DNA of 64,000 bases from a virus: positions 44,412-108,411 of the IMG/VR virus record IMGVR_UViG_3300001450_009970; one strand, given 5' to 3'. A program made the translations under genes and the position numbers. Of this stretch, positions 12,399-59,738 are shown piece after piece; positions within the stretch are counted from its first letter, which is position 1; the number at the start of each line of letters is the position of its first letter. Below the pieces are notes generated by a model. That model saw nothing but the letters and a program-made list of their open reading frames with translations. It did not search any database and was not told the origin of the DNA.

Positions 12399-13136
12399 TT
12401 ATTTTTTATAAGGAGCTCTAACATCGATTTTACCGCCACTTAATTCTTTTGCAACTTTATCAACCTGTTCTGGTTCAATCTTTGGCATATCCGCTCTTGG
12501 TGGTGCACCTTCTGGTGGTCCAACTCTTTGAATAGCAGCTAAGGCTTTTGCAATTGTAGCTTCACCTCTTTTTTCAAACCAAGCAATAGCTTTTTCTTTA
12601 TTATAGAATTTTTTATCCATTCCTTCACCGTCATAGATTGCAGCTTTAACATTATCCATAGTTGATGTGAAAATATTAGCATCTCCAGCAACAGCTAGAC
12701 CTCTTTTATTTCCTAATGCATCTCCGGCAGCTCTAAGAACTGGAACTAAATCACCAATATTTAATTCAGATTGTACTCCTGTTACTTTTGCAGAAGGATT
12801 GTTGAACATTGTAGCAGCCCATCTATGATGACCATCTAGAATTCTGTTATCTTGTGAAATAACAGCACCAAGATCTCCACCTTCAACTCCTACAATAGCC
12901 ATACTTAATGCCTTAGCTAAATAAACTGCATCCTGTGATGGCTTTAATGATTTAGCTGGAATAGAAGCTTTTTTAGTTACTACTACATCGTCTTGAGTAT
13001 CTCCATCTTTTTTACCAGCTTTAAAAAATTCCTTGTCATTTTTATTTCCAGGATTTGGAAATTTTGATGGATCGATTTCTTTAGTTTTTAAGCTTTCATT
13101 AATAACGAATTGCTCAAATGATATTAATTTTTTCAT
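12399..13136 (-). CDS. Capsid-tagged ParB/sulfiredoxin-like domain protein
   Basis: The 245-residue protein begins with the tag MKKLISFEQFVINES, with possible prohead-protease cleavage after INE (residue 14). Residues 60-115 carry a ParB-like fold signature: a helix (AVYLAKALSMAI) followed by ISQDNRILDGHHRWAATM, where DGHHR matches the DGxHR nucleotide/catalytic motif of ParB-Srx proteins. ParB-family domains bind CTP or act as nucleases or phosphotransferases; which applies here cannot be told. The C-terminal third is Pro-rich and charged (GPPEGAPPRADMPKIEPEQ). A late-promoter-like motif lies 17 bases upstream (13154-13162). I infer packaging into the head and delivery with the DNA. Confidence 0.8.
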   Translation of the reverse strand: MKKLISFEQFVINESLKTKEIDPSKFPNPGNKNDKEFFKAGKKDGDTQDDVVVTKKASIPAKSLKPSQDAVYLAKALSMAIVGVEGGDLGAVISQDNRILDGHHRWAATMFNNPSAKVTGVQSELNIGDLVPVLRAAGDALGNKRGLAVAGDANIFTSTMDNVKAAIYDGEGMDKKFYNKEKAIAWFEKRGEATIAKALAAIQRVGPPEGAPPRADMPKIEPEQVDKVAKELSGGKIDVRAPYKK

Positions 13137-13178: not shown

Positions 13179-13493
13179 TTAGTCATAAACTACTGCACCA
13201 TCATCACCATAAGTAAATACTGCGGTTTCACCTTCTAGATCTAAAGCAATTACATCTTCATCAGGCTCTAAAAAATCTCCGGCAGTTCCAGAATCGTCAT
13301 ATTTTTTAAGGTCTTTCATCTTGCCTTTAGCAATAACATTATAGACATCTCCATGATAATCCTCAGCTTTATCACCAACCTTTACTTTATTAAAAGGCTT
13401 TATTTTTTTAGCTTCATTAACTTCATCGTTAGTTGATTCTTTTAAATTATAAGATTCATTTACAAAATCTTCAAATGATTCAATATTTCTCAT
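13179..13493 (-). CDS. Capsid-tagged small beta-barrel protein
   Basis: The 104-residue product starts with the tag MRNIESFEDFVNES. A second possible cleavage site, EVNE before AKKIKPF, lies at residue 27. The remaining 77 residues look like a single SH3-like barrel (KPFNKVKVGDKAEDYHGDVY, then DEDVIALDLEGETAVFTYG). Similar KVGD-type modules occur inside the 741-residue protein next to it. It forms its own unit, with a GATAAATAA motif 19 bases upstream at 13513-13521 and another after its stop. Function is unknown. Confidence 0.8.
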   Translation of the reverse strand: MRNIESFEDFVNESYNLKESTNDEVNEAKKIKPFNKVKVGDKAEDYHGDVYNVIAKGKMKDLKKYDDSGTAGDFLEPDEDVIALDLEGETAVFTYGDDGAVVYD

Positions 13494-13521: not shown

Positions 13522-15747
13522 TTAAAGTGATCTATATTTCTTTTGAATAGCCTGCCAAACTTTTTCTGGTGTAGTATTTCTACCGGTAGCAAATTTATTA
13601 ACGCTAGTAGAACCACGTTTATTAGGTGAAGTTATTGATAATTGAATGAAAGGTTTGTCACCAATTTCGTTATATTGGAATGCCCATATTAATGCTAATT
13701 CATCAACTTTAACAGTGAATTCTACTGCACCATAAAAGTTTTCTTTTACATCTTCAACCTTCATATTTCCTAAATATTTGTCACCCTTTAATAAAAATTC
13801 CGTAAAAGATTTATACCAGTCGTTCGATCTTTTTTCAAATTCTGACAACGGCCATGCTTCATTAACAGATTCAAATTTCAGATTTTGAGTAACTTCTGGT
13901 GGAAGATCGTTATATTCAGAATCAATATATTTTTCTACATTATCTGGGTCTTTAACTGCTGTTAATAGTGCTGATTCTCTTTCGTCATCACTTAATTCAT
14001 CCCATTTAATTGATTTTTGAGATTTCTCGTTTAAAAATTCGTCTAGTGATTCCGCAACTAATTTCATGTTTGGCTTTGATTTTGTCTGATTAATATTATC
14101 AAATATTCGTTGTCCAAATTTAGAAAGTTGATATGTTTTTTCACCGCTTTCATTTTTTGATACTTTAAAGTAATTCATGTTTGATTTGAACCATCGAGTT
14201 TGATTAACTGATTTTCCTAAATCTTCTTCAACACGAATTAACATATCCTTGATTTGTTCTTCGGTCATTATATTGTTACCAATATATTTGATAATTGAAT
14301 TACGTAAGGGTGCTTTTTCATTTATACGTCTAGCATCATAAATTCCATATTTACGTTTAATAGTATGTTTAGCTTCATTAACACTAACTATCTTAGCTTG
14401 TTTTATACGTGATTTATTTACTAATTCTTTTTCTTTCGTTTCAGCTTCTTCTTTAGTTTTAAATATTCCAGATTTAGCATTTTCCCCATCTTGGGTTTTA
14501 TATTCAACTCTAAAACCTTCCCCTGATTGATTAACTGATTCAGTTATAGAATTCAACATTTCCTGTTTACTAAATACTAAGCTTTTTGGATGACTTGAAA
14601 GTTCAAATGTAGTACTATACATAGCACTAAGTTTAGCACCAATTTCTTTACCATTTTTATCTGTTACGATATATTCATTGAAAGCGTTTGACTTTCTACC
14701 ATAATCAGTAACAGTATAAACATTAGTATCTGTATTAAATTTAGATCCGATTTCTATTTTATTGAAAATTTTAGTACCTAGCATACTGATTTTACTTCCA
14801 GAAATAGTTCCCTCATTTAAGTCATAAGATTCACTAAATAATCTTCTACCTGTTTTATCTTCTAGATGTAATTTTGCTTTAGGATATTTCTCTTGCATTA
14901 CATTAAATGTAGCAGGAGCAACATCTGGAGTAGAAACTGGTTCTTGATGAATTACTTTGCCATCTTGTATAACTACAATTACTGCTGGATAGCTTCCTTG
15001 AGTTGCAGCTTTATATACTTTACGTCTAGATGCTTCAGTAACTAATGATTCATCCATTACCATATATTTAGATGGAACTATAAATTCTCCTTGTCCACTT
15101 TTTACAATCATTCCTTTATTACCACGAGTCATCTTAATAACTTTATAAACATCGTCATAATCTAAAGAAACACCTTCCTTATCTAGAATTTCTTCAACAA
15201 AATGTGGAGCTCCCAGAACTACAAAATCACCTTTCTTGAATTTAGATTCGTTAATTTCTTTATTTTCCTCATTTGCTAAAGGATTAGGAATAGTAATTGA
15301 TTTACCTTGATAAAATCTCTTTTTTAGTTTATCAATAGTATCATTCTTCTTTAAATAGTAAGGATGCTCATATTGATCTGAATCATCTCCTACAATAAGA
15401 ATAATATGTTCTCCTTCATCAGAACTATATATTTTAAAGTCTGAACCTAATACTTTACCTTTTATATTCTTTTTAGCCTCATTTACAGATTCGGTATATA
15501 ATATTTCAGAATCAAAATTATATTTAGGACCATCTTGTTCAGCATCTTGTACATCTATAGTTCCGTTTTTATTAATATTGATAACTCTGAATTCAGTTCC
15601 AACTGAGGCACCTTTATGCATTTCTTCATCTCTATCATCGTCACCAGTTTGATATATTACAACAATATCACCGACTTTTGATCGTTCGCCATTGTAATAT
15701 TTTGCAGATGCCTCATTCAAGAAGTCTTCAAATTTTTCTATTGCCAT
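13522..15747 (-). CDS. Capsid-tagged polyprotein-like chain of small modules
   Basis: The 741-residue protein opens with MAIEKFEDFLNEASAKY. Prohead-protease-like sites recur along the chain: LNE|A at residue 12, VNE|A at 90, INE|S at 167, VTE|A at 238, LNE|G at 312, ITE|S at 403, VNE|A at 458, LNE|K at 574 and VNE|A at 630, with a weaker INE|K at 477. Near-identical ESVNEA hexapeptides occur at 86-91 and 626-631. Cutting at these points would release nine pieces of about 55-116 residues. Several look like SH3-type barrels (SKVGDIVVIYQTGDD; FKKGDFVVLGAPH) and one like a winged helix (460-560). The motif 15765-15773 lies 17 bases upstream. The functions of the pieces are unknown. Confidence 0.85.
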   Translation of the reverse strand: MAIEKFEDFLNEASAKYYNGERSKVGDIVVIYQTGDDDRDEEMHKGASVGTEFRVININKNGTIDVQDAEQDGPKYNFDSEILYTESVNEAKKNIKGKVLGSDFKIYSSDEGEHIILIVGDDSDQYEHPYYLKKNDTIDKLKKRFYQGKSITIPNPLANEENKEINESKFKKGDFVVLGAPHFVEEILDKEGVSLDYDDVYKVIKMTRGNKGMIVKSGQGEFIVPSKYMVMDESLVTEASRRKVYKAATQGSYPAVIVVIQDGKVIHQEPVSTPDVAPATFNVMQEKYPKAKLHLEDKTGRRLFSESYDLNEGTISGSKISMLGTKIFNKIEIGSKFNTDTNVYTVTDYGRKSNAFNEYIVTDKNGKEIGAKLSAMYSTTFELSSHPKSLVFSKQEMLNSITESVNQSGEGFRVEYKTQDGENAKSGIFKTKEEAETKEKELVNKSRIKQAKIVSVNEAKHTIKRKYGIYDARRINEKAPLRNSIIKYIGNNIMTEEQIKDMLIRVEEDLGKSVNQTRWFKSNMNYFKVSKNESGEKTYQLSKFGQRIFDNINQTKSKPNMKLVAESLDEFLNEKSQKSIKWDELSDDERESALLTAVKDPDNVEKYIDSEYNDLPPEVTQNLKFESVNEAWPLSEFEKRSNDWYKSFTEFLLKGDKYLGNMKVEDVKENFYGAVEFTVKVDELALIWAFQYNEIGDKPFIQLSITSPNKRGSTSVNKFATGRNTTPEKVWQAIQKKYRSL

Positions 15748-15764
15748 AATATAATTTTCTTTTA

Positions 15765-15773
15765 TTATTTATC
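15765..15773 (-). promoter_or_regulatory. Late-promoter-like motif GATAAATAA overlapping a stop codon
   Basis: The final TAA of the motif is the stop codon of the NMNAT-like gene (15765-16619). The motif ends 17 bases before the start of the 741-residue polyprotein-like gene, giving that gene its own late unit. Confidence 0.62.
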
Positions 15774-16619
15774 TTCAGATAGTTCGTCTTTTAATTGAGG
15801 ATAATATTGATGTGTAGTTGTATCAGTCATGGATTTGAATGATTTTATATCATCTTCTATTAAAGCTTTACGAACTTTAGATGCACTAATATTATCATCA
15901 GTACGTTTTATTTCATGAGCTTTAAATTCTGGATCTACATTTAAATCCAATCTATAAGAATCTTTTTGAATTTGACCGCTATAGGCTTTTAATCTATCTG
16001 ATCCAGTACCCCACAAAATAGGCTCATATTCAGGACGTAATTCATTATAAATTGTATCTATACCCGCTCTTGAAATAGTTCTGAATCCTTCTATAAATTT
16101 ATGTTTCTTTGCAAGATCGTTAAATATTTGCTCTATTAAACCTTCACTAAACGGTGTTTTTTCCTTGTTAATTTTCTTTGCACGCACCATAAGTACTATT
16201 ACAGGATATCCATTTTCTTCGGACAAAGATTTAAGAACTTTTATATGTCCTAGCGTCGGAGGTTGAAAACGTCCCGCAATAATATTAACTTTTTTATTGC
16301 CAGGTTCTGTTGAATCTACCTTTAAAGCTTCATTTAAAGATTCAGATATTTTTCCGGTTTTAGATACTTTATAATATGTAGGTATTTTATCCCAATCTTT
16401 ACCGTTAGTTTTTATGCCTGAATACATTTGATTTTTATCACTTTTCCATGCACCACCAGTTCCATCTTTATATTTGATCATGGTTGGTGTTTCTTCATAA
16501 AACCACCAATCGCCATCAGAATGCTGTGCTAAATATCTTGCCCAATCTGGGATATTTTTAAATTTAGGAAATTGTTTTCCTTCATTTATGAAATCAAAAA
16601 ATCTTTTGAATCTATTCAT
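15765..16619 (-). CDS. Capsid-tagged nucleotidyltransferase, NMN adenylyltransferase-like
   Basis: The 284-residue protein starts MNRFKRFFDFINEGKQF, with possible cleavage after INE at residue 13. A module of about 84 residues follows. A second site, SESLNE|A at residue 97, comes immediately before a complete HIGH-type nucleotidyltransferase domain: NIIAGRFQPPTLGHIKVL (GRFQPPTLGH at 116-125), LWGTGSDR and ISASKVRKAL (near 247), the ISxxxxR motif. This family includes NMN and pantetheine-phosphate adenylyltransferases and related cytidylyltransferases; the substrate cannot be told here. Cleavage at 97 would free the catalytic domain. It starts one base after the ligase-like gene, so the two are probably coupled. 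Confidence 0.85.
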   Translation of the reverse strand: MNRFKRFFDFINEGKQFPKFKNIPDWARYLAQHSDGDWWFYEETPTMIKYKDGTGGAWKSDKNQMYSGIKTNGKDWDKIPTYYKVSKTGKISESLNEALKVDSTEPGNKKVNIIAGRFQPPTLGHIKVLKSLSEENGYPVIVLMVRAKKINKEKTPFSEGLIEQIFNDLAKKHKFIEGFRTISRAGIDTIYNELRPEYEPILWGTGSDRLKAYSGQIQKDSYRLDLNVDPEFKAHEIKRTDDNISASKVRKALIEDDIKSFKSMTDTTTHQYYPQLKDELSEDK

Positions 16620-17869: not shown

Positions 17870-19024
17870 TTATTTTATTTTCATTCCAATCATCATATTC
17901 TTATCGGAAATACCAATAACAATACCATCTCTTTCATATTCAGTTCCGTCAGCATAAGCACCAATTGGCTTAACATATTTAAATCCAAGATTTTTAATAA
18001 GTTTTGAAGTAATATCAAATCCTAGACTGGATTCAAATCCAGTAACTTTACCAAATCCAGTAACAAATCCTGTTTTAGCTGCAATTATACCTTTAGGATT
18101 TTTTTGAAATGCTTCAGGAGCAACAGTCTTAAATTCTTTTACAAATGCTTTCCATATTGGATCACTAGATAATGTTTTTCTGTCCCAAGTAAAATCACGA
18201 ATCATTGAAAAACTATCCGATTCAAATACTTCTATTCCATTATCACCATAGAATTTTTTAATTATATCGTAAAGATCGTCCTTTGCATCTTGATTATTTT
18301 TTATAAAAACTTTTAACGGTCTTATTAGATTTAAAAAGTTTTTTCTACTAAGCTTCATTTCTTCATCTATAAATTCAGACTCATTAATAGATTTAAGATT
18401 TAATTCAATTAAAGTATTAACACCATCTCTATGAACCTCAGAAAATTTGACATCACCAAAATCAGATAAAATATCTTTTAAAATTGTTGTATCTAATTCT
18501 ATTATCTCATCTTTTAAATGTTCATAAGCAGAAGTATAAAATTGTAATTTGCCACTTCTTAATCGTGCTATTAATATTCCAATATTTTCAACTGCTAGCC
18601 AGGCATGCCTATTTCTTTTGCCTCTTCGACTTACTTTACGAGCCATTAATTCTTCTATTAAAAGCGCTTGAAATCTAGAACTAGCCTGATCAACACCACT
18701 ATAAGTAATATTATCTGTTACAAAAAAATCATATAGTGTATCAGCTTTAAAAGTTTCATTTAATGGAAATGACCATTGTCTTGATGACATTGGTGCATAA
18801 GGAGCTAATTTCTTCCATGCCTTTTCAGCATCTTTACGTTTACCAGCTTTATCCAGATCCTGTATCATTTGATTAGTTGTTTCCCAATCAGCAATACCAG
18901 CCTTATAAGCTCTCGGATCATCACTCATCATATAAGTCCAATCCATAGATTTTAATTGTGCCTCAAGATCCTTGATAGTAACTCTTTCATTTAAGAAATC
19001 GTCAAACTTTTTAAATTGTCCCAT
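17870..19024 (-). CDS. Capsid-tagged multi-module protein, unknown function
   Basis: The 384-residue product starts with MGQFKKFDDFLNERVTI (cleavage candidate after residue 12). Two further candidates are PLNE|T at 90 and SINE|S at 225. Module 1 (13-90) is a small helical unit with a DKAGKRKDAEKAWKKLAPYA segment. Module 2 (91-225) includes a basic stretch RKVSRRGKRNRHAW. Module 3 (226-384) ends with a Gly-rich part (KTGFVTGFGKVTGFE). No enzyme family is recognised. It follows the 19039-19977 gene by 14 bases and belongs to the unit that starts at the 20437-20445 promoter motif. Confidence 0.78.
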   Translation of the reverse strand: MGQFKKFDDFLNERVTIKDLEAQLKSMDWTYMMSDDPRAYKAGIADWETTNQMIQDLDKAGKRKDAEKAWKKLAPYAPMSSRQWSFPLNETFKADTLYDFFVTDNITYSGVDQASSRFQALLIEELMARKVSRRGKRNRHAWLAVENIGILIARLRSGKLQFYTSAYEHLKDEIIELDTTILKDILSDFGDVKFSEVHRDGVNTLIELNLKSINESEFIDEEMKLSRKNFLNLIRPLKVFIKNNQDAKDDLYDIIKKFYGDNGIEVFESDSFSMIRDFTWDRKTLSSDPIWKAFVKEFKTVAPEAFQKNPKGIIAAKTGFVTGFGKVTGFESSLGFDITSKLIKNLGFKYVKPIGAYADGTEYERDGIVIGISDKNMMIGMKIK

Positions 19025-19038
19025 TGTAATTTATAATT

Positions 19039-19977
19039 TTAATTCCATCCGCCAGAATAGTAATCACTACCACCTGAAACTTTTGGTATTTTGAATGTTT
19101 TTCCGTTTATTGTAAATGTAGCTGTGTAAAAATATGTAGTAGAAAATGAAGAACTAACAACTGCGCTATGCTCACTTCCTAGCATCTTGATTTCTTTTAC
19201 ATCTATTTTATCCCACTTAACATCATCACCTTTTAGTATAATTTCTTTAATGTATGCAAATGGTTTAGCCATTGGAGGTTGAACCCATGCCAATTTACCA
19301 AGATTAGTTCCGTTTCCACCAGGTCTATCTGCAACTTTATACATGTCTGTCTTATATTCTATTAGTTCTCTGATATTGAAATCCGTCCACCAACTTCTTG
19401 CAAATTGAGCCATCTTTGGAATTCCAAATTTTAATATATGAGCCTTCTCAACATCAGTAAAAGTTTTAATTATATCATAAAGCTTGTATTTTTTGTTAAG
19501 TTCACGTCTATCTTTACTTGCAAGACCAGACCATAATGCATATATAATCTCATCATCGTCATTATCTTCAATTAGCTTAGTATATGAAGCTGCTAATCTA
19601 ACTGCTTCTTCCTTGCTTCTAGGATCTGCATTATTACGATGTGCATCTTTATAATCATCACCAAAGTTTCTGAATACCTCTGTAAATTCCTTTATCATCT
19701 TTGAATTTGGTGTTCTACCTGTTCCAGCTGCAGCTAATATATCATTTTTATCGTTTTCACCGAGTTCAGCAAATTTAGGATCTTTAACAAGCTTTGCTAA
19801 TGTTATATTTGTATCAATTCCAGCATTTTTTAATGACCAAGCAAGATCTCCTTGTTTACTTTCAACATCACCTTTACTATAAGAATTCTTTATTGTATAA
19901 ACTTTCTTTACAACTTTCATATAATCGCCGTAATAAGCTTCGTTTAAAAATTGTTCATAGGATTGTATCTTCTTCAT
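19039..19977 (-). CDS. Capsid-tagged protein, unknown function
   Basis: The 312-residue protein begins MKKIQSYEQFLNEAYYGD. Its first 14 residues are identical to those of the upstream neighbour (19987-20418), and the DNA is nearly identical too. The N-terminal 110 residues are helical and charged (AWSLKNAGIDTNITLAKLV). A helical middle follows (DDDEIIYALWSGLASKDRREL), then a C-terminal beta-rich part (SSSFSTTYFYTATFTINGKT) ending in a Gly/Tyr/Ser tail. No domain is recognised. It is 9 bases downstream of its paralogously tagged neighbour. Confidence 0.78.
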   Translation of the reverse strand: MKKIQSYEQFLNEAYYGDYMKVVKKVYTIKNSYSKGDVESKQGDLAWSLKNAGIDTNITLAKLVKDPKFAELGENDKNDILAAAGTGRTPNSKMIKEFTEVFRNFGDDYKDAHRNNADPRSKEEAVRLAASYTKLIEDNDDDEIIYALWSGLASKDRRELNKKYKLYDIIKTFTDVEKAHILKFGIPKMAQFARSWWTDFNIRELIEYKTDMYKVADRPGGNGTNLGKLAWVQPPMAKPFAYIKEIILKGDDVKWDKIDVKEIKMLGSEHSAVVSSSFSTTYFYTATFTINGKTFKIPKVSGGSDYYSGGWN

Positions 19978-19986: not shown

Positions 19987-20418
19987 TTATTTGTTTAGGT
20001 CTTTATTAAAATCAATGTAACTATCACGATCTGTAAGTTTTTTCATTCCTTGAACCATATCTCTAGTTAATGATTCTTTATTATCGTATGCAATAACTAA
20101 AAAGAAGTCTGCGTTGTTACCACTGTCATTTTGTCTATCTGAAGATTCCCATCCCGGACCCCATTTCACCCAAGATCCATTTACTGATTCAAGATTTTTC
20201 ACATCCTTAGTATAAAGATCACCAGCAGCATTGGTTGTTAACAAATATGCAAAGTCTTCTTTATATTTGAAGTTTTTGTCTTTTGGTTCATAAACATCGA
20301 ATCCGAGTTTCTTAAGACCTTTTTTGATATTAGGCATATCACGTATAATGTAATGTGGTTCATATCTAGAAGTATTAGCTTCGTTTAAAAATTGTTCATA
20401 TGATTGTATCTTCTTCAT
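19987..20418 (-). CDS. Capsid-tagged small protein, unknown function
   Basis: The 143-residue protein starts with MKKIQSYEQFLNEANTSR, the tag shared almost base for base with the next gene. After the possible cleavage site (residue 13) lies a compact alpha/beta domain of about 130 residues (HYIIRDMPNIKKGLKKLGFD; FAYLLTTNAAGDLYTKDVKN). The spaced charged residues and the DRQNDSGNNADFFLVI segment do not match a family I know. It is the first gene after the 20437-20445 promoter motif and leads a five-gene unit down to 15765. Confidence 0.78.
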   Translation of the reverse strand: MKKIQSYEQFLNEANTSRYEPHYIIRDMPNIKKGLKKLGFDVYEPKDKNFKYKEDFAYLLTTNAAGDLYTKDVKNLESVNGSWVKWGPGWESSDRQNDSGNNADFFLVIAYDNKESLTRDMVQGMKKLTDRDSYIDFNKDLNK

Positions 20419-21504: not shown

Positions 21505-21930
21505 TTAAGCTATTTTATACAATGCCTTATATACTGTATTAATTTGCTTTTCTAATGTATTTAACTTTTTAGGATCCATTTTTTTAATAGATTCAGCAAC
21601 CCAATACTGTGTACCTTCATGACCTAAAAGAGCAACTAAGTCACCGAATGCTTTCATAGTCGAACCTGCATTAGCTTCATTTACTACATCATTAACCGAT
21701 TCATAAACATCGATTTCTGGATTTTTTGATTTAATTAATTTCTTTTCCGCCGAGTCAATAGCATCACTTAAATTATCCTGATATTCAGGATTAATAAATC
21801 CTTCCCAATCACCAGAATTTTGTAATTCAGTTAATCCAACTATACAGGCTTCTATTTCCATCTCTTCTAATTTAATATTAGATGCTTTACCCTCAGTTAA
21901 AAAGTCTTTATATGCTTTTATATTTTTCAT
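21505..21930 (-). CDS. Capsid-tagged two-module small protein
   Basis: The 141-residue product starts MKNIKAYKDFLTEGKAS (possible cut after LTE, residue 13). A second site, ESVNDVVNE|A, lies at residue 85, so processing would yield pieces of about 72 and 56 residues. The first piece is acidic and helical. The second (ANAGSTMKAFGDLVALLGHE to the end) is a helical domain rich in Lys and Leu. Neither matches a family I recognise. It lies 17 bases after the acidic repeat gene. Confidence 0.78.
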   Translation of the reverse strand: MKNIKAYKDFLTEGKASNIKLEEMEIEACIVGLTELQNSGDWEGFINPEYQDNLSDAIDSAEKKLIKSKNPEIDVYESVNDVVNEANAGSTMKAFGDLVALLGHEGTQYWVAESIKKMDPKKLNTLEKQINTVYKALYKIA

Positions 21931-26798: not shown

Positions 26799-27863
26799 TT
26801 ATTTCAATAATTTTTTAACTAATTTATCACCACGTCTTGAATGTTCAAAGGCTTTATCTCTTGCCTGCTTTGCAGTTTTTGTAACCGCTTTATCAAATTT
26901 CACTTTATTGCGAACCTTTTCATTACGATCAAGAAAGTCTTCCTTAATTGAATCTAATAATTCACGACCAGTATCAACTTTTAATTTACCACCTAAAGCA
27001 TTATTCAAATCCATAGTTGCAGCAAATCCTTTGATTCCATTAGCTATATTTTCAAGTGTCATATCTTTGGCATTCAATCCAGGAGTCTTCTTTAAAATTG
27101 AATCTATCTTAAAGTTTTTAATATCTATATCATTATAAACAGCTAAAAATTTAGCAACATCAAGAAAAAGAGTTTTTGGATTAGATGTAATCTGTATAAT
27201 TTTAACATCCTTTCTATTTGAAAATGGAATCAATAATTCATCACGGGTCTTAGCAATAACGCCAAATTTAGCAAGATTTATGTCAAGTATTTTTGCGAAT
27301 GATGAAAATAAATTTCCAGTTACAAATCCTTTAAGATTGTATTCTGGTGTATATCTCATTTGCATCCATTCTTTATATGAAGGAAATCCAAATACAAAAT
27401 CTATTTGAACATGAACATCAGGCTCTATTTCAAATATCAATCCACTTGAACCTTTAACAAAATCCATGTATTCATCTTCTGGAATATTTTTAGGTTTTTT
27501 AGCTTCTACATAATCACCAATCAGTCTTCTATATTTTCTTTCTATTTTACCTGAATCTGCTCTAAATTCTTCAAATGATGGATATTCATTTCCAGGTAAA
27601 ATTACCAGATAATCAACATCGCCATAAATTCTATCAGGGGTTTCTTCTAGATCTCTATCAACATATCCACTTGAACCATTAGCTTCTACAAATTCTATAG
27701 GAGCTTCACCTTTTGATTCCAGCCATTTATTAAGATTCTTTCCAAATGCCTCAAATTGCTTTATTGATTTTTTAACTAGAATTGGATTTAAAACTGTATT
27801 CTGTGTCTTAGTAGTTTGCCATCCTCCTTCATTCAAGAATTCATTGAATCTTTTAAATTTCAT
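26799..27863 (-). CDS. Capsid-tagged nucleotidyltransferase-fold protein (second of two)
   Basis: The 354-residue protein begins MKFKRFNEFLNEGGWQ, with a candidate cut after LNE (residue 12). The nucleotidyltransferase core shows FVEANGSSGYVDRDLEE (GSSGY 63-67), catalytic aspartates D82 and D84 in YGDVDYLVI, and the third acidic strand VHVQIDFVFGFPSY near 150. The C-terminal 100 residues are basic and helical (KFDKAVTKTAKQARDKAFEH). The order of motifs matches the tagged enzyme at 20560-21489, so they are likely paralogues with diverged ends. It has its own late-promoter-like motif 21 bases upstream. Confidence 0.8.
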   Translation of the reverse strand: MKFKRFNEFLNEGGWQTTKTQNTVLNPILVKKSIKQFEAFGKNLNKWLESKGEAPIEFVEANGSSGYVDRDLEETPDRIYGDVDYLVILPGNEYPSFEEFRADSGKIERKYRRLIGDYVEAKKPKNIPEDEYMDFVKGSSGLIFEIEPDVHVQIDFVFGFPSYKEWMQMRYTPEYNLKGFVTGNLFSSFAKILDINLAKFGVIAKTRDELLIPFSNRKDVKIIQITSNPKTLFLDVAKFLAVYNDIDIKNFKIDSILKKTPGLNAKDMTLENIANGIKGFAATMDLNNALGGKLKVDTGRELLDSIKEDFLDRNEKVRNKVKFDKAVTKTAKQARDKAFEHSRRGDKLVKKLLK

Positions 27864-28643: not shown

Positions 28644-28994
28644 TTAAAAGAATTTCTTACCCATAGAAGAACCTAATGCAGCTCCAACTAATCGTGAAGT
28701 TAATAGATCGTAAAATACACCAGATTTAATTCCTAATGCTTTAGCAATCATTTTACCTACAGATTTTCCTAATGCAAATCCAGTAAGTCCACCTAGTAAC
28801 GATCCAAAGATACCTTCATTGGTAAGCTCATGTTCCAATTGTTCCAGAGTCATTTCACTTTCAATAAATCTTTGATATGCCTGTTCAACCAGTAACTCTT
28901 CTTCGGCTGTAATTCCCTCAGTAAGATTTTCCTTGAACGATGGAATTAAATCTAATTCTTTATCTTCATTAATTAATTCTTGAAATGTTTTCAT
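28644..28994 (-). CDS. Capsid-tagged precursor of a glycine-zipper membrane peptide
   Basis: The 116-residue protein starts MKTFQELINEDKELD, very close to the T4 IPIII tag MKTYQEFIAE, with a cut candidate after INE (residue 10). A second is LTE|G at 26 and a less typical one TNE|G at 60. Residues 61-116 form a hydrophobic glycine zipper (GIFGSLLGGLTGFALGKSVG, then RLVGAALGSSMGKKFF). Such zippers insert in membranes and oligomerise. Release of this part in the mature head would give a peptide that could act on the host membrane during DNA entry; that is inference. The late motif 29011-29019 is 16 bases upstream. Confidence 0.8.
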   Translation of the reverse strand: MKTFQELINEDKELDLIPSFKENLTEGITAEEELLVEQAYQRFIESEMTLEQLEHELTNEGIFGSLLGGLTGFALGKSVGKMIAKALGIKSGVFYDLLTSRLVGAALGSSMGKKFF

Positions 28995-52759: not shown

Positions 52760-53509
52760 TTATTTACCGCCAGTCATTACAAACCAGTCCATTCCTTCAT
52801 CATTTTTCAATTCTTCTTCAAGCTTTTCCAGTTCTTCAGAACCTTCTTCTTTATATGAATCAAAATTAATTGTAATTCCACCAGGCAATTTGAAATCAAA
52901 TGCACCTAACATTCTAGCTAATTGAGTTTTACTCTTAGCTACACAATATCTATAGAATATTTCATCATCCATCAAAAATTCTAAAGGAACTTTATTATAA
53001 ACCTGAAGTACCATGTCTGTCTGTGGTGTTTCACCTAAAATTACAAGGTCTCTAGTAAGTCTGCTAAAATTATAAGAAATTGGATGATACAAAATATGTC
53101 TGCTCAAATCTATAAATGATTCTTGCATTACATATTCCATTAATGCTTCAGTTGAATTTGAAATATCACTTACATCTTTAAATAATGCCTTTTCTAATGA
53201 AAAATCTGCCATATTACTAAATGGTGATGCAGATCCTCCGCCTTGGCCATTAGTTTGTGAAATTGAATTTACTGAATAAATACAACTCGGTAATGTAATA
53301 GTCCTGTATTTTGTAAAATTGGAATCGCTAAGCTGTGATTTTTTTATAATATAATATCGTTCTTCAACGGCTTCTTCATATTTCTTGTAGATCCATTTTT
53401 CCGCATATTTTAATATTCTTTCAATCTCGGTTTTTGGCACATTAAATGGAAGAGAACATCCAACTGTAATCTCATCCTGTATTTCTTTTATAAATTCATC
53501 TTTAAGCAT
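52760..53509 (-). CDS. Structural protein beside gp25, unknown role
   Basis: The 249-residue protein starts MLKDEFIKEIQDEITVGC. A conserved-looking region follows, with SLPFNVPKTEIERILKYAEK and AVEERYYIIKKSQ. The middle contains Gly/Ser loops (NGQGGGSASPFSNMADFS) and the C-terminus is acidic (EELEKLEEELKNDEGMDW). The composition fits a neck or baseplate connector, and it stands next to gp25, but I cannot name a T4 counterpart. It is one base from the next upstream gene. Confidence 0.7.
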   Translation of the reverse strand: MLKDEFIKEIQDEITVGCSLPFNVPKTEIERILKYAEKWIYKKYEEAVEERYYIIKKSQLSDSNFTKYRTITLPSCIYSVNSISQTNGQGGGSASPFSNMADFSLEKALFKDVSDISNSTEALMEYVMQESFIDLSRHILYHPISYNFSRLTRDLVILGETPQTDMVLQVYNKVPLEFLMDDEIFYRYCVAKSKTQLARMLGAFDFKLPGGITINFDSYKEEGSEELEKLEEELKNDEGMDWFVMTGGK

Positions 53510-53510
53510 A

Positions 53511-54824
53511 TTAGTATACTTTTAATTTTGTTGGTTTTATCTTTGTATATTCAACAACTTTTACATTGCTTTTAAGTGAAGCACTATCGCTAATATTTCC
53601 TTCTCTAAAAATACCGCCATTCATAGTTCCATTGAATATTGTTTCCTTACCGTTAACATAACAATCAAAAATATCTACAGTGGAATTGCAATATGAATTT
53701 TTAAGTTTTGAATTTTTAATTTCTGTATTTGCATAAATATTGTTTACTTCTATATTAGAATTAATTACAGTACATTTATATAAATTACATTTATTTAATA
53801 CTGAATCATAAATTTCTGAATCAACAACTTCAATATCTCTTAGATTTAATGATTTAAATTTTGCATCCTTGATTTGCATCCTAGATAAAAATGTATCATA
53901 ATTAATAGAGCCTGTTTTTAAATTGCTATTAACTAATATACAAAAAATTTTATCTTTAATTTTTGGCCAATGAGTTTTTAATACCTGCTCATTATCATTA
54001 AGATCGACTGTTAATTTTAATTCTGGAAATTCCTTTTTGAATTTCATCGGTGATTCATAACCTATTAAAACATCACGTAAATCATCAAGAATTAATTCTA
54101 ATTTAATTCTATTTTTTTCAGTATATTCATTAGAATTTAAAGTTGATGCTAAACTTATCATATAATAGTCTACACAATCTAATGCCTCATTTATTTTCTT
54201 TTCATATTTTTCACCACCAATATAGTTAAATCCTATTTGATTAGTCAATATGCCAGTATAATCAATTCCGTACAAATTACTATTAGGAAGTTTATATCTA
54301 GTAGAATCTATAGTTTTTATATTATCAACAATTTTATTTACAGGTACAATATGATACATCGAACGCACAAATGGAGAGTCCTTCTGTAGTTCAAATTTTG
54401 ACCATATAAGACTCTCATCAAAATTCAATATGTACCTTAATCTATCTATATTTGATACATCAGGGATCAACTGTGAACCTTCTGCAACACTTAATTTGAC
54501 TCTAAGAAATGTTTTAGGATCTGTATAACCAAATTCACGTATTTTTTCAAATACTTTAATAATTGTTAATCTAGCAGTTTGATAATCTAGATTGCCTGTT
54601 ATTAATTGTACGTATGGATTTAAAAATGCATTATTGAATTTCAATTTATATGTGTAATCATCACATATTATATTGTCTTCGTTATCTTTAATTATTTCTT
54701 TGTTAAGATGATCCTTTAGAATTTGTACTGTTTTATCAACGCCATAATAAGAAAAGAATTCAAATTTTAATTGAATTTCAAACTGATTATAAACTTTGCT
54801 ATATTTTACAGGATCAAATGACAT
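53511..54824 (-). CDS. Protein with helical body and C-terminal beta-helix
   Basis: The 437-residue protein has an N-terminal alpha/beta half (FEIQLKFEFFSYYGVDKTVQ) that I do not recognise. From about 325 it has a repeated short-strand pattern (DAKFKSLNLRDIEVVDSEIY, then SVLNKCNLYKCTVINSNIEV), a pentapeptide-like right-handed beta-helix that runs nearly to the end. It opens the long tail operon from the motif at 54843-54851, directly before the gene at 52760 and gp25. An adaptor in the tail or a chaperone is possible. Confidence 0.72.
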   Translation of the reverse strand: MSFDPVKYSKVYNQFEIQLKFEFFSYYGVDKTVQILKDHLNKEIIKDNEDNIICDDYTYKLKFNNAFLNPYVQLITGNLDYQTARLTIIKVFEKIREFGYTDPKTFLRVKLSVAEGSQLIPDVSNIDRLRYILNFDESLIWSKFELQKDSPFVRSMYHIVPVNKIVDNIKTIDSTRYKLPNSNLYGIDYTGILTNQIGFNYIGGEKYEKKINEALDCVDYYMISLASTLNSNEYTEKNRIKLELILDDLRDVLIGYESPMKFKKEFPELKLTVDLNDNEQVLKTHWPKIKDKIFCILVNSNLKTGSINYDTFLSRMQIKDAKFKSLNLRDIEVVDSEIYDSVLNKCNLYKCTVINSNIEVNNIYANTEIKNSKLKNSYCNSTVDIFDCYVNGKETIFNGTMNGGIFREGNISDSASLKSNVKVVEYTKIKPTKLKVY

Positions 54825-54872: not shown

Positions 54873-56351
54873 TTACTTTACCTTGATTCCGTATGTTTTA
54901 TCAGACTTAGCTAAGGCTGTATCGTATTTTCCATCAAACCCGCTTACAACAAAAGTTTTTTGTGGATTGACAACGACTCCTATTTTTTCCATCAATTCCC
55001 TATTAATAAGCATAGGAGTAGATTTAGATGAACGATCAACAACGCTAAAATGCATTTTACTATATGATATTCCTCTAAATTTAATATCAAGTTCTATTAT
55101 AGGACGTTTTGTAACCGTATCACCTACTTCGGCATTAGCGTAACCAACAATTTTTGATTTCATTTTTTTATTTCCAGCAGACCAATTTAAATAGCCATTT
55201 TTTTCTGACATTTTATCCGCATGAACTGATGACGATTTAGTACCGTTTCCACTATCAAATTTAGCAACATATTCACCAAATCCAGTAAGATTAACAACTT
55301 CCATATATCCTATTTCAGTAACATTGACAGACCAATTAGATTTATCTTTTATGAAATCTATAATATCTTGTAATATAGATTTTCCAATAACTTTTTTAAT
55401 TCCTTTAGTCCCAGGAGAAGCATTTACTTCAAGTATATAATTCTTTTTAGTTTTATCATCAACAATAATATCAACACCACACCAATGACATCCCATAGCA
55501 TCTGCAGCCTTAACTGCTAAATTAATTTGTTCTTCAGTTAATTTTACATTTTCAACAGATCCACCAAGTGAATGATTAGTTCTAAAATCTTTTTTGTCTC
55601 CTCTATTACGTCGCATATATCCAATGATTTTAACATTGTCTTTATTGTTTCCGTGATAGTCAAATCTTTTAGTTAAGACCTGAATTCTAATATCGTAATC
55701 CGAATCAATTTTTTCTTGAATTAAAGTTTCAGTATCAGAAAGTTTCCACATTGTCTGTAAAACAGATTTAAGCGATCCTTGTGAATCAATAATAGAAACA
55801 CCTATTCCTTGAGATCCTGAAAGAGTCTTTAAAATTATAGGAAATTTTCCACCTATTTTTTTAATTGCATCATCTAATGAATCTATACTAGGAACTAATG
55901 CCGTTCTAGGCGTCGGTAATAAATGCTGCTCTAGTTTTTGTGCAGTTAAATATTTATTTTCACAATCCAGGATTGAAGATAATGAATTAATGCAGAAGAA
56001 TCCATTACTTTCAAATAATGATAGAATTCCACGAGTATATGTGTTTTTTACAACACCACGTCTAGCTATTATAACAGTATTTTCTTTATTAATAACAAAT
56101 CCTTTTGATTCACCTTTATTTGTTAGCGTAATATTTCCATCATCATCTGGATCACTAATAGTACAGTCTTTTAAGCAAAATAAAAATCCGTTCATTCCAG
56201 AATTTACAGCCTTTTCAATTAAAAACTGTGGTGTATCTTGTGAATCTGGATCTACTGGCGTATTTGTCATTACAACAAGATTTAATTTATTACCTAGCTG
56301 AACTGCTTCAGTTAGCATATCATCAAATCTCTTGAACCTTATATTTTGCAT
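54873..56351 (-). CDS. Capsid-tagged RimK-like ATP-grasp ligase fused to a RimB-like retropepsin domain
   Basis: The 492-residue protein starts MQNIRFKRFDDMLTEAVQLG, matching the capsid tag with a cut candidate after LTE (residue 15). Residues 25-330 form a RimK-type ATP-grasp enzyme: K175 and GSQGIGV 179-185 (ATP loop), LIQEKIDSDYDIRI, GVDIIVDD, and metal ligands in ILEVNASPG (E308, N310). RimK adds glutamates to the C-terminus of ribosomal protein S6. Residues 350-492 resemble the RimB retropepsin-like domain (EYVAKFDSGNGTKSSSVHAD with D366; FSVVDRSSKSTPMLINRELM). The variant FDSGNGTKSSS for the usual DTGAxTSS keeps the Asp. The gene is monocistronic with its own promoter motif. Confidence 0.87.
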   Translation of the reverse strand: MQNIRFKRFDDMLTEAVQLGNKLNLVVMTNTPVDPDSQDTPQFLIEKAVNSGMNGFLFCLKDCTISDPDDDGNITLTNKGESKGFVINKENTVIIARRGVVKNTYTRGILSLFESNGFFCINSLSSILDCENKYLTAQKLEQHLLPTPRTALVPSIDSLDDAIKKIGGKFPIILKTLSGSQGIGVSIIDSQGSLKSVLQTMWKLSDTETLIQEKIDSDYDIRIQVLTKRFDYHGNNKDNVKIIGYMRRNRGDKKDFRTNHSLGGSVENVKLTEEQINLAVKAADAMGCHWCGVDIIVDDKTKKNYILEVNASPGTKGIKKVIGKSILQDIIDFIKDKSNWSVNVTEIGYMEVVNLTGFGEYVAKFDSGNGTKSSSVHADKMSEKNGYLNWSAGNKKMKSKIVGYANAEVGDTVTKRPIIELDIKFRGISYSKMHFSVVDRSSKSTPMLINRELMEKIGVVVNPQKTFVVSGFDGKYDTALAKSDKTYGIKVK

Positions 56352-56368
56352 GTGAATACTTATTTTAG

Positions 56369-56377
56369 TTATTTATC
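56369..56377 (-). promoter_or_regulatory. Late-promoter-like motif GATAAATAA before the RimK-like gene
   Basis: The minus strand reads ATTTAGATAAATAACTAAAA and ends 17 bases before the start of the RimK-RimB-like gene. It follows the terminator of the S1-like gene. Confidence 0.65.
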
Positions 56378-56386
56378 TAAATTAAA

Positions 56387-56412
56387 AATGGAGGAAACTT
56401 AATTCCTCCATT
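56387..56412 (-). terminator. Rho-independent terminator after the S1-like gene
   Basis: The arms AATGGAGGAA (56387-56396) and TTCCTCCATT (56403-56412) form a 10-bp stem with a 6-base loop, followed on the minus strand by T-rich sequence. It isolates the S1-like gene as a single-gene unit. Confidence 0.85.
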
Positions 56413-56416
56413 GATT

Positions 56417-57559
56417 CTATAATTTAAAAAATAGCTTTTTTGATTCTTTATCTATTCGATACAGATCGACTGTTATATCATCACCCTGTTCGAGTTCAAT
56501 ATTAAGACCTTCATATTCAGATTTATGAAGCAGTCCTGTTATTTTAGGTTCTAGTTCAACAAATAATCCGAATCGAGTTATATTTCTAATTTTACCAGTA
56601 ACGCTACTAGGAACTTTATATCGTTTTTCAATATCATCCCAAGGATCAAGTTCTTCAATTATTTCTTTTTGAGTAAGAACAATTCTAAATGCATCTACAA
56701 CCTCTTTAATTTTAAATTCTATTGAATCTCCTGGCTTGATACTTCTACTATTAAATTCTTCAAATGATTTCGAATCTAATTCAGATTTATGAATTAATCC
56801 AGTAAGACAACTATCAAATTCTACAAAAATACCTATCTTTGATGCGCCTGTTACAAATCCAGTTTTAGTCTCACCTTGAACGAGATTTGCTGCAGCTTCA
56901 GGAACCTGAGTTTTTAGAAATGCTCTATGTGAAACTACAATATAATTTTTACCTGAATCATAATTGATAGGACATACATAAATATCTTGTCCTAATAAAG
57001 ATTCAAAGTTTGTTAATTTATTCATACCACCTTGTGATCCAGGCATAAATACTTCAATACCTCCTATATCTAGAAAATATCCACCGTAAACTAGGGTTTT
57101 AACTTTTGCAGGATATGCAAAATTAGCACCAATATTAGATTTTATTTCTTCAAACCTACGTTTCTTAATACCGTCAGTATAGGATCCTACAATATTATAA
57201 TTTTTTGATTTTTGCTTATTTGAAACTTCTTTTAATAAGACTTCTATTGAATCACCTTCATTAAGATCCTCAATAAATTCTGGACTTTCTTTTGATAAAT
57301 CTAGATATGCTGATTCTCTCCAGTTAATGTCTACTTCTAAATAGCCATTACTCTTTTTTACTATTGTTCCTTGTGTAATTGTTTTGCTAGAAGGTTTTTT
57401 GAAATCTTTGCCTTCCCAGTGAGATGTTAATGTGTCGTAATATTCTTGTGCATAATCTTCTTTTGAAAGAATTTTTTCACCATTAGATGTTATTACTGTT
57501 GAGGTTTTTGTTGACCAATCGAAATTATCAATTGGTGATACATGATTGTACGCTGACAT
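56417..57559 (-). CDS. Ribosomal protein S1-like RNA-binding protein with four S1 domains
   Basis: The 380-residue protein consists almost entirely of S1-type OB folds, at about 48-116 (GTIVKKSNGYLEVDINWRES), 140-205 (AKVKTLVYGGYFLDIGGIEV), 222-292 (GFVTGASKIGIFVEFDSCLT, then GLIHKSEL) and 312-380 (GKIRNITRFGLFVELEPKIT, then GLLHKSEY). Domains 3 and 4 are the clearest, with GxFVE and G-L-x-H-x-S motifs. Bacterial bS1 unfolds mRNA and brings it to the 30S subunit. In a phage whose genes lack Shine-Dalgarno sequences, a private S1-like factor could favour phage mRNA; that is inference. It has its own promoter motif (57592-57600) and terminator. Confidence 0.88.
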   Translation of the reverse strand: MSAYNHVSPIDNFDWSTKTSTVITSNGEKILSKEDYAQEYYDTLTSHWEGKDFKKPSSKTITQGTIVKKSNGYLEVDINWRESAYLDLSKESPEFIEDLNEGDSIEVLLKEVSNKQKSKNYNIVGSYTDGIKKRRFEEIKSNIGANFAYPAKVKTLVYGGYFLDIGGIEVFMPGSQGGMNKLTNFESLLGQDIYVCPINYDSGKNYIVVSHRAFLKTQVPEAAANLVQGETKTGFVTGASKIGIFVEFDSCLTGLIHKSELDSKSFEEFNSRSIKPGDSIEFKIKEVVDAFRIVLTQKEIIEELDPWDDIEKRYKVPSSVTGKIRNITRFGLFVELEPKITGLLHKSEYEGLNIELEQGDDITVDLYRIDKESKKLFFKL

Positions 57560-57591: not shown

Positions 57592-57600
57592 TTATATATC
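57592..57600 (-). promoter_or_regulatory. Late-promoter-like motif GATATATAA before the S1-like gene
   Basis: The minus strand reads CTAGGGATATATAACCTATA and ends 32 bases before the S1-like start codon, a longer spacing than for most copies. Confidence 0.62.
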
Positions 57601-57607
57601 CCTAGTA

Positions 57608-58060
57608 TTATTTGAATTTCTTTATAAGATCTGTAATATCAATATGAACACCTACCATTCTTACCGGCTTATCATCATCCCATTCACAAACACAACCACG
57701 ACACAAAATATCTACAGTATGTCCTAATTTATGTTTATATCTAGATATAACTTCAAATTTAATTTTTCCTTTTGATTTTACGTGATCTGCAAATTGTTGA
57801 AGAGCATCAGTTAAATCATCCGAATGAATTAATTTCATCCATGTACTGGTTGAATTTTCTAATTCACTGTCGCTATATCCTAATTGATTTTTCCATGAGG
57901 GACTTAAATATTCATAGTTAGTAACAATATTCCAATCCCAGTATCCATCTAAAGTATTATCAAGTACATCGGTTAATGTCTGATTTTCGCTAGCAAGATT
58001 CAACTCTATTTTATTTAAAGTATCTGTTAGCTCTTTTATTTTTTTTAAATTATCTGGCAT
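57608..58060 (-). CDS. Stand-alone PAS-domain protein
   Basis: The 150-residue protein is a short coiled-coil lead (5-28) followed by one PAS_3-type fold (28-145): LDNTLDGYWDWNIVTNYEYL, SPSWKNQLGYSDSEL, WMKLIHSDDLTDAL, then DILCRGCVCEWDDDKPVRMV and GVHIDITD. There is no kinase, cyclase or DNA-binding part. PAS domains sense ligands or redox state or mediate dimerisation in host signalling proteins. This one could bind and poison host PAS kinases, or sense a ligand in the virion or cell. It lies two bases after the TM coiled-coil gene, in a three-gene late unit. Confidence 0.88.
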   Translation of the reverse strand: MPDNLKKIKELTDTLNKIELNLASENQTLTDVLDNTLDGYWDWNIVTNYEYLSPSWKNQLGYSDSELENSTSTWMKLIHSDDLTDALQQFADHVKSKGKIKFEVISRYKHKLGHTVDILCRGCVCEWDDDKPVRMVGVHIDITDLIKKFK

Positions 58061-58928: not shown

Positions 58929-59738
58929 TTATGATTTTGATGGACCGTCGACAGAAACAGTATTACTTCTTGTCTGTGGTATTTCTTTTGAATCTATAGA
59001 AGTAAGTGCAGGTGTAATTGGTGCTACTGCAGCCAATAATGCTGCATATTCAGGTACTAATCCTGTAGTAAATGGGACTGCACCAGCCGCGGCTCCATTT
59101 TTTGTAGCAAATTCAATTACTGCATCATTCAATGCTTTTAATTGATCAGATAATGCGGTTAATGCTGTTACATTTTTTTCACCTAAAACTGCGGGTTCAT
59201 CACTAATGGTTTCTGTTCCAATGCTAATATGATCTTCCTGTATATGAACTACCTTTCCAGCCGCATGTTCAAGATAAATTGTATTATCTGGTCGTATATT
59301 TATTTGGCTTAAATTATAGTCAATCATTAAGCCCTTTTCTATAGTGTAAAATATTTTAAGACCGCCTTCAATCTCGGTATCATACATTAATACTTGAGCA
59401 GTTGCATAATTATCACCTGTTATTTCAGCAGATAATTCTTCAGACAAATGTTGAATATATGTATAGATTGGCGTATATAAATTACTATTTTCAAATTGTA
59501 CATTAACAATCGATCCGATCTTGGGTAATGAAAATTGACCCGAGCCTGTAGCACTTCCTGCACTTGTCATAAATCCTGAAGGACTTGCCCATGGAATTTG
59601 TGCATCTTCTAGTTTATCAAATTTACCAAAAACTTTTACGCGTACGCGACCTTTTTCTAGCGGATCTAATATATCAACTACTTCACCTAACCAGTCCATT
59701 TGACCGATCTTATCGTTTGTCATTTCTGATGTCTTCAT
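58929..59738 (-). CDS. Baseplate hub spike protein, gp5-like OB fold and beta-helix, no lysozyme
   Basis: The 269-residue protein has an N-terminal gp5/GpV OB fold (WLGEVVDILDPLEKGRVRVK, then IPWASPSGFM and SLPKIGSIVNVQFENSNLYT, about 15-110). A short strand-rich section follows (GLKIFYTIEKGLMIDYNLSQ; PDNTIYLEHAAGKVVHIQED), fitting a spike beta-helix, and then a C-terminal helical tail. T4 gp5 has 575 residues with a lysozyme domain in the middle; none is present here. The start overlaps the preceding gene by one base (59738). Confidence 0.82.
   Translation of the reverse strand: MKTSEMTNDKIGQMDWLGEVVDILDPLEKGRVRVKVFGKFDKLEDAQIPWASPSGFMTSAGSATGSGQFSLPKIGSIVNVQFENSNLYTPIYTYIQHLSEELSAEITGDNYATAQVLMYDTEIEGGLKIFYTIEKGLMIDYNLSQINIRPDNTIYLEHAAGKVVHIQEDHISIGTETISDEPAVLGEKNVTALTALSDQLKALNDAVIEFATKNGAAAGAVPFTTGLVPEYAALLAAVAPITPALTSIDSKEIPQTRSNTVSVDGPSKS

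What the first reader, a model, noticed from the sequence alone, without database searches (positions are those of the whole stretch)
54873..57559. A phage ribosome-targeting pair: capsid-tagged RimK-RimB fusion next to an S1-like protein
Seen: a RimK-type ATP-grasp enzyme with a RimB-like retropepsin domain and an N-terminal capsid tag; the adjacent upstream gene encodes four S1 domains. Each has its own late-promoter-like motif. Known: RimK glutamylates ribosomal protein S6; in Pseudomonas RimB works with RimK; S1 brings mRNA to the 30S subunit. Inference: ribosome modification from the first minutes of infection (packaged enzyme) plus an S1-like factor that favours phage mRNA lacking Shine-Dalgarno sequences.
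Basis: partly seen in the sequence, partly recalled or inferred. Interest (0 to 1): 0.8.

Follow-up and report, generated by a model that had tools for sequence, protein, structure and literature searches.

The report
Phage head-packaged RimK-RimB enzyme, unpaired S1
This phage carries an enzyme, probably packed inside its head and injected with its DNA, that should add and trim amino-acid tails on a bacterial protein such as a ribosomal protein; a mimic of ribosomal protein S1 is encoded next door, but the two genes were found side by side only in this phage.

Summary
ORF 54873-56351(-) is a RimK-type ATP-grasp ligase with a C-terminal RimB-like retropepsin and an N-terminal T4-type capsid-targeting tag. 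ORF 56417-57559(-) has four S1 folds matching domains 1-4 of ribosomal protein bS1. Both have a strand-specific late-promoter-like motif, and the phage's genes lack Shine-Dalgarno (SD) sites.

The "pair" is not supported. The S1 gene is fixed in the baseplate module in 79 of 79 other loci examined; none has RimK there. RimK-RimB belongs to a family common in marine phages, usually beside a RegA-like gene, in genomes that use SD sites. Two related S1-bearing phages also carry RimK-RimB, about 8 kb from the prohead protease gene.

The packaging idea is strongly supported. The tag is present in 74 of 76 relatives with a readable N-terminus; its glutamate is invariant in 42 of 42 aligned proteins; a gp21-type prohead protease is encoded; and the YerA41 homologue was found in virions by mass spectrometry.

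The substrate is unknown. It passes the general RimK cut-off but fails the S6-ligase model. Best reading: an injected glutamate-tail editor, perhaps of bS6, plus a separate late S1 mimic. New variant of a known kind.

The parts
54873..56351 (-). CTS-tagged RimK-RimB fusion, 492 aa
   Evidence: PF08443 E=8e-34; TIGR00768 159 bits over cut-off 143.4; AlphaFold model mean pLDDT 84, best Foldseek matches are RimK structures, E 5.5e-23
56304..56351 (-). N-terminal capsid-targeting-like tag, residues 1-16 (MQNIRFKRFDDMLTEA), with an LxE site like the T4 gp21 cleavage site
   Evidence: PWM +11.3 bits, 1 of 1728 interior windows as high; Glu15 invariant in 42 of 42; compare T4 IPII/IPIII MKTYQEFIAEA; model disordered over its first 19 residues
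55332..56285 (-). ATP-grasp ligase module, residues 23-340
   Evidence: Z about 30 to RimK and to ArgX/LysX
54942..55325 (-). RimB-like retropepsin domain, residues 343-470
   Evidence: catalytic-motif Asp366 at 55254-55256 invariant in 42 of 42
56369..56377 (-). late-promoter-like motif GATAAATAA at -26 of RimK-RimB
   Evidence: GATAAATAA/GATATATAA found 39 times on the coding strand and 0 on the other
56384..56411 (-). hairpin (TGGAGGAA/TTCCTCCA) followed by a T run: probable terminator between S1 and RimK-RimB
   Evidence: read directly from the sequence; no terminator program was run
56417..57559 (-). S1-like protein, 380 aa, four S1 domains (residues about 60-112, 149-201, 231-289, 318-370)
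57592..57600 (-). late-promoter-like motif GATATATAA at -41 of the S1-like gene
53511..54824 (-). 437-aa protein of unknown function whose homologue directly follows S1 in 79 of 79 other loci
   Evidence: no PHROG at E<=0.001
58929..59738 (-). baseplate hub/OB protein upstream of S1, found upstream in 65 of 79 loci (in the rest it was not matched, many being cut by contig ends)
   Evidence: phrog_37871 baseplate protein 1.7e-34

Best explanation
The two genes are independent, translation-linked genes of one phage. (1) RimK-RimB is made late, drawn into the prohead by its N-terminal tag, freed by the gp21-type prohead protease, injected with the DNA, and at the start of the next infection edits a C-terminal amino-acid (most likely glutamate) tail on a host protein: the ATP-grasp part adds residues, the retropepsin part trims them or stimulates the ligase. 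A ribosomal protein, most likely bS6, is the leading but unproven target. (2) The S1-like protein is a shortened bS1 (domains 1-4), untagged, made late from the baseplate gene block, and probably helps late SD-less phage mRNAs reach the 30S subunit. Shown by sequence: the domains, the tag, the protease gene, the lack of SD sites, the synteny. Inferred: packaging in this phage, timing, chemistry and targets.
For: The tag is statistically strong and present in 74 of 76 IMG/VR relatives with a readable N-terminus; a PF03420 prohead protease is found in 9 of 9 phages tested, T4 control included; the YerA41 homologue (YerA41_066; the 2020 paper's g112 'Ribosomal protein modification protein*', matched here by gene order) is an LC-MS/MS phage-particle-associated protein; in three related contigs RimK-RimB lies about 8 kb from the prohead-protease gene, amid other tagged ORFs. 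RimK subfamily cut-off passed; invariant ATP-grasp and DTG/DSG residues. A RegA-like translational-repressor motif lies just upstream of RimK in 62 of 70 loci, in a frame that overlaps its start in 54. S1: collinear with bS1 domains 1-4 by sequence (NF004952 E=8.7e-48) and structure (9guv/9gut); S1-bearing phages show SD at or below shuffled background.
Against: The S6-ligase model is not met (95 against 331 bits), and the MptN and LysX models score higher (122 and 110 bits). The one tested bacterial RimBK hybrid trimmed but showed no glutamylation of the RpsF tested (passages). The YerA41 protein has no obvious tag, and its gene peaked in the middle class, not late. In marine relatives the gene sits in a regA/DNA-polymerase neighbourhood, not a head operon. 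Fixed synteny in a baseplate block leaves open that the S1-like protein is a virion part.
Confidence: 0.5

Rival explanations
1. RimK-RimB is a packaged enzyme but its target is not the ribosome: it tags or trims another host protein (a defence protein, RNA polymerase, a carrier protein) or a small molecule, as LysX/ArgX, MptN and CofF do.
For: Sequence scores are higher for MptN (122 bits) and LysX (110) than for the S6 ligase (95); fold matches to ArgX/LysX are tied with RimK (Z 30.3 and 29.5 against 30.2).
Against: RimB-type peptidases are linked to poly-Glu on RpsF; a RegA-like translational-repressor motif lies next to RimK in 62 of 70 loci.
Confidence: 0.35
2. One reading: RimK-RimB and S1 form a dedicated pair, for example RimK modifies the phage S1 or both act in one complex.
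For: Adjacent here with similar promoter motifs; both present in two other phages.
Against: 0 of 79 other S1 loci have RimK beside S1; RimK-RimB abounds in phages where no S1 was found and that use SD sites; the phage S1 does not end in acidic residues.
Confidence: 0.08
3. The S1-like protein is a baseplate or tail component that re-uses OB folds and has no role in translation.
For: Locked in the baseplate block in 79 of 79 loci.
Against: Sequence similarity to bS1 over four domains at E about 1e-48; best structural matches are bS1 on the 30S.
Confidence: 0.2
4. RimK-RimB modifies a phage virion or injected protein (for example trims a tail inside the head) and not a host protein.
For: It would be packaged with many other tagged proteins; one tagged ORF ends in an acidic tail (G001 65681-66160).
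Against: Only 6 of 208 ORFs have an acidic C-terminus or a Glu run by the filter used.
Confidence: 0.15

Closest known systems
Bacterial RimBK hybrid (Desulfotalea psychrophila DP2392) and Pseudomonas RimABK
   Same: RimB retropepsin and RimK ATP-grasp domains in one polypeptide or one system; RimB removes Glu from polyglutamylated RpsF and stimulates RimK (PMC11957791, passages).
   Different: Domain order is reversed (RimK then RimB); a capsid tag is present; phage-borne. No glutamylation of SBW25 RpsF was seen for the bacterial hybrid.
T4 Alt and internal proteins IPI-IPIII
   Same: Prohead-core proteins carried in the head; [quoted passage not shown] IPs are targeted by a short N-terminal sequence (PMC9026906, passages).
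   Different: Different chemistry (amino-acid ligation/peptidase, not ADP-ribosylation) and a probably different target.
YerA41 g112 (YerA41_066)
   Same: RimK-RimB homologue, 35.5% identity over residues 82-463; mass-spectrometry phage-particle protein.
   Different: No obvious tag at its N-terminus.
Phage rpS1-like proteins of huge phages (Al-Shayeb et al. 2020, PMC7162821)
   Same: S1 proteins in phages that rarely have SD sites; the translation-initiation role was already proposed there (passages).
   Different: This phage contig is 166.5 kb, and the gene is shown here to be fixed in the baseplate block.

Membership tests
RimK family alpha-L-glutamate ligases (TIGR00768) | score over curated cut-off | tested here: met
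   159 against 143.4 bits
RimK family alpha-L-glutamate ligases (TIGR00768) | conserved ATP-grasp residues | tested here: met
   K133, K175, D294, E308, N310 and others invariant in 42 of 42; their catalytic roles are recalled family knowledge
Ribosomal protein S6--L-glutamate ligase (NF007764) | score over curated cut-off | tested here: not met
   95.2 against 331 bits
RimB / PF05618 retropepsins | Pfam gathering score | tested here: not met
   window protein 20.5 against 27 bits; 35 of 42 relatives match at E<=0.01, best 1.5e-9
RimB / PF05618 retropepsins | D-[TS]-G catalytic motif | tested here: met
   Asp366 42 of 42; aligned to DTG of 9g58
RimB / PF05618 retropepsins | cleavage of poly-Glu tails, as a dimer | not testable with these tools
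   needs biochemistry
Bacterial RimBK hybrid | RimB domain N-terminal to RimK | tested here: not met
   order is tag, RimK, RimB; bacterial order
T4-type tagged internal head proteins | N-terminal targeting tag with [LI]xE cleavage site | tested here: met
T4-type tagged internal head proteins | cognate prohead protease in the genome | tested here: met
   PF03420 45 bits in G001
T4-type tagged internal head proteins | presence in the virion | not testable with these tools
   only the YerA41 homologue has mass-spectrometry support
Ribosomal protein bS1 | S1 domains in bS1 order | tested here: met
   collinear with domains 1-4
Ribosomal protein bS1 | 30S ribosomal protein S1 equivalog cut-off | tested here: not met
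   best model NF004952 163 against 524 bits; TIGR00717 148 against 577
Ribosomal protein bS1 | association with the 30S subunit | not testable with these tools
   needs infected-cell ribosomes
Conserved RimK-S1 pair | adjacency kept in relatives | tested here: not met
   0 of 79

The most novel reading that the evidence does not exclude
Head-packaged RimK-RimB enzymes are a widespread class of injected ribosome editors. On entry they rewrite the C-terminal tail of bS6 on existing 30S subunits. In SD-less hosts of the Bacteroidota type, bS6 lies with bS18 and bS21 in the pocket that hides the anti-SD (PMC9976891, passages), so the edit would change which mRNAs the old ribosomes accept before any phage gene is expressed.
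Probability: 0.13. Interest if true: 0.9.

Novelty: new variant of a known kind. Interest (0 to 1): 0.62.

Why it matters
T4 Alt shows that phages inject enzymes that modify host RNA polymerase. A packaged ligase-peptidase aimed at translation would be a new kind of instant takeover, and the family is common: 537 relatives in one capped scan of IMG/VR (not all of these were checked for the tag or the RimB domain). Cultured relatives exist (Pelagibacter phage Mosig with tag and RimB domain, Yersinia phage YerA41 with the RimB domain but no obvious tag, Methylophilales phage Melnitz with tag but no RimB domain), so the idea can be tested now. The S1 synteny also makes a testable question of whether a baseplate-block S1 is a translation factor or a tail part.

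Tried and rejected
The S1-RimK pair was tested by synteny and rejected as a conserved unit. In one search no positive control was among the 12 records, and the largest (G025, 94 kb) has no match to a conserved gene of the tail module, so its zero is weak evidence. A poly-Glu substrate within the phage: 6 of 208 ORFs with an acidic C-terminus or a Glu run, none compelling. A conserved small gene downstream of RimK as acceptor: several different small ORFs, none universal. Cellular relatives in genome contigs: 3 loci, one on a 13-kb contig labelled Thaumarchaeota that may be phage DNA, two Idiomarina RimK-like; the search is pattern-based and limited. Host: the contig is not named to me; the lack of SD, the A-rich leaders and a distant S1 in Prevotella Lak phages suggest Bacteroidota, but this was not tested; an N-terminal FDW motif shared with Bacteroidota bS1 is recalled, and a search with the first 100 residues of one relative gave only one insignificant PDB match. 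The retropepsin part was not compared by fold: the ATP-grasp domain filled the list, so that is inconclusive. Papers: RimK + phage + ATP-grasp gave 4 papers, RimK + pelagiphage 0, RimK/bacteriophage/virion listed 25 of 8,238, S6 modification/phage/AMG listed 12 of 872; apart from the YerA41 table entry, none of the titles and abstract openings listed describes a packaged RimK-RimB. PaBG mentions a RimK-related lysine biosynthesis protein (passage). All papers were seen as listings or passages, none in whole.

Full report
What is there. The window lies in a T4-like phage contig; the same sequence is held in a longer 166,532-base IMG/VR contig (G001). On the minus strand, an S1-like gene (56417-57559) is followed by a hairpin with a T run and then by RimK-RimB (54873-56351).

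RimK-RimB. The ATP-grasp part is clear by sequence (PF08443 E=8e-34; TIGR00768 159 bits) and by fold (RimK structures at E 5.5e-23; Z about 30 to RimK and equally to ArgX/LysX). The C-terminal part is a RimB-like retropepsin: below Pfam's cut-off in this protein, but matched by 35 of 42 aligned relatives and by a solved member (9g58, E=2.8e-6), with the motif Asp invariant in 42 of 42. The order RimK-RimB is the reverse of the bacterial RimBK hybrid (passages of PMC11957791).

The tag. The N-terminus resembles the T4 capsid-targeting sequence of IPII and IPIII. In the same contig 29 of 207 other ORFs carry the strict form, against 2 of 1728 interior windows and 4 of 4160 shuffled N-termini; RimK ranks just below these 29 and above every other N-terminus. 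Of 80 IMG/VR relatives kept, 76 had a readable N-terminus and 74 carry the tag; 39 sequences remain after thinning near-duplicates. The tag's Glu, the position at which the T4 protease would cut, is invariant in 42 of 42 aligned proteins. A gp21-type prohead protease is present in 9 of 9 phages tested, T4 included as positive control. The YerA41 homologue is listed with the asterisk that marks mass-spectrometry phage-particle proteins (passages); g112 corresponds to YerA41_066 by gene order. That protein has no obvious tag, which counts against the tag being necessary.

Where RimK-RimB travels. A RegA-like translational-repressor motif lies upstream in 62 of 70 loci, in a frame that overlaps the RimK start in 54 (identified by motif and by the Mosig annotation). 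In the phages nearest to this one (G004, G005, G025) RimK-RimB lies about 8 kb from the prohead-protease gene among tagged ORFs. A tree puts the window protein with these and with L059 (5 rows, support 100/98); placement inside that group is weak.

The S1-like gene. Four S1 folds align with bS1 domains 1-4 (NF004952 E=8.7e-48; 9guv/9gut), short of the ribosomal-S1 cut-offs. It has no tag. In 79 of 79 other loci it is followed by the homologue of 53511-54824 and then of 52760-53509, with at most 406 nt between the S1 match and the next, and 0 of 79 has RimK there. Several of the surrounding genes are baseplate genes.

Are they a pair? Of 23 S1-bearing records, 3 hold RimK-RimB (G004, G005, G009; the proteins read from G005 and G009 are identical), tens to hundreds of kb from S1; two more have only weak ATP-grasp matches. 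Of 12 RimK-bearing records, 0 hold S1, but these are mostly short and the largest has no match to a tail-module gene. In the complete records Mosig, YerA41 and Melnitz, RimK is present and S1 absent; in LR756500 the reverse. So adjacency was seen only in this phage.

SD use separates the two. S1-bearing loci show SD at background (7 of 202 and 32 of 807 genes; shuffled 3.5% and 4.3%), while the RimK loci L022-L098 use SD (238 of 588, 40.5%, shuffled 18.5%). In G001 1 of 150 genes has a weak SD. The link between S1 and missing SD was reported for huge phages in 2020 (passages of PMC7162821). RimK-RimB therefore does not depend on an SD-less system.

Mechanism. Made late from its own promoter-like motif, packaged by the tag, freed by the prohead protease, injected, and active at once: these steps follow from T4 (passages of PMC9026906) and are inferred here. 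RimB trims poly-Glu from RpsF and stimulates RimK in Pseudomonas, so an add-and-trim editor of a Glu tail is the simplest reading, with bS6 the first candidate. Against this: the S6-ligase model is not met, MptN and LysX score higher, and the bacterial hybrid did not glutamylate the RpsF tested.

Verdict. Observation confirmed; packaging strongly supported; ribosome targeting plausible and untested; pairing not supported. A new variant of a known kind.

Noticed in passing
window 12399-13136, 13179-13493, 13522-15747, 15765-16619, 17870-19024, 19039-19977, 19987-20418, 21505-21930, 26799-27863, 28644-28994: Ten further ORFs with the capsid-targeting-like tag (12399-13136 in a looser form); the whole contig has about 30. 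Of 20 tagged or near-tagged proteins scanned, one had a Pfam match over its cut-off (a nucleotidyltransferase, 15765-16619). A large set of putative injected proteins of unknown function.
   Followed up: partly
window 57608-58060: A PAS-domain protein (PF08447 E=1.8e-15) in the variable stretch between the baseplate hub gene and S1.
   Followed up: no
L006 9247-9630 (-): In huge phage LR756500 a tagged ORF lies between S1 and the next conserved gene, the same place where RimK sits here; possibly a cargo insertion point.
   Followed up: no
L059 / L191: A 592-aa relative in which the retropepsin motif FDTGN is degraded (FDSDK), suggesting loss of the peptidase.
   Followed up: no
L003 6004-7389 (Mosig), L005 82-1131 (Melnitz): Genes of cultured marine phages annotated as glutathione synthetase or RimK-like begin with clear tags; Melnitz lacks the RimB domain.
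   Followed up: partly
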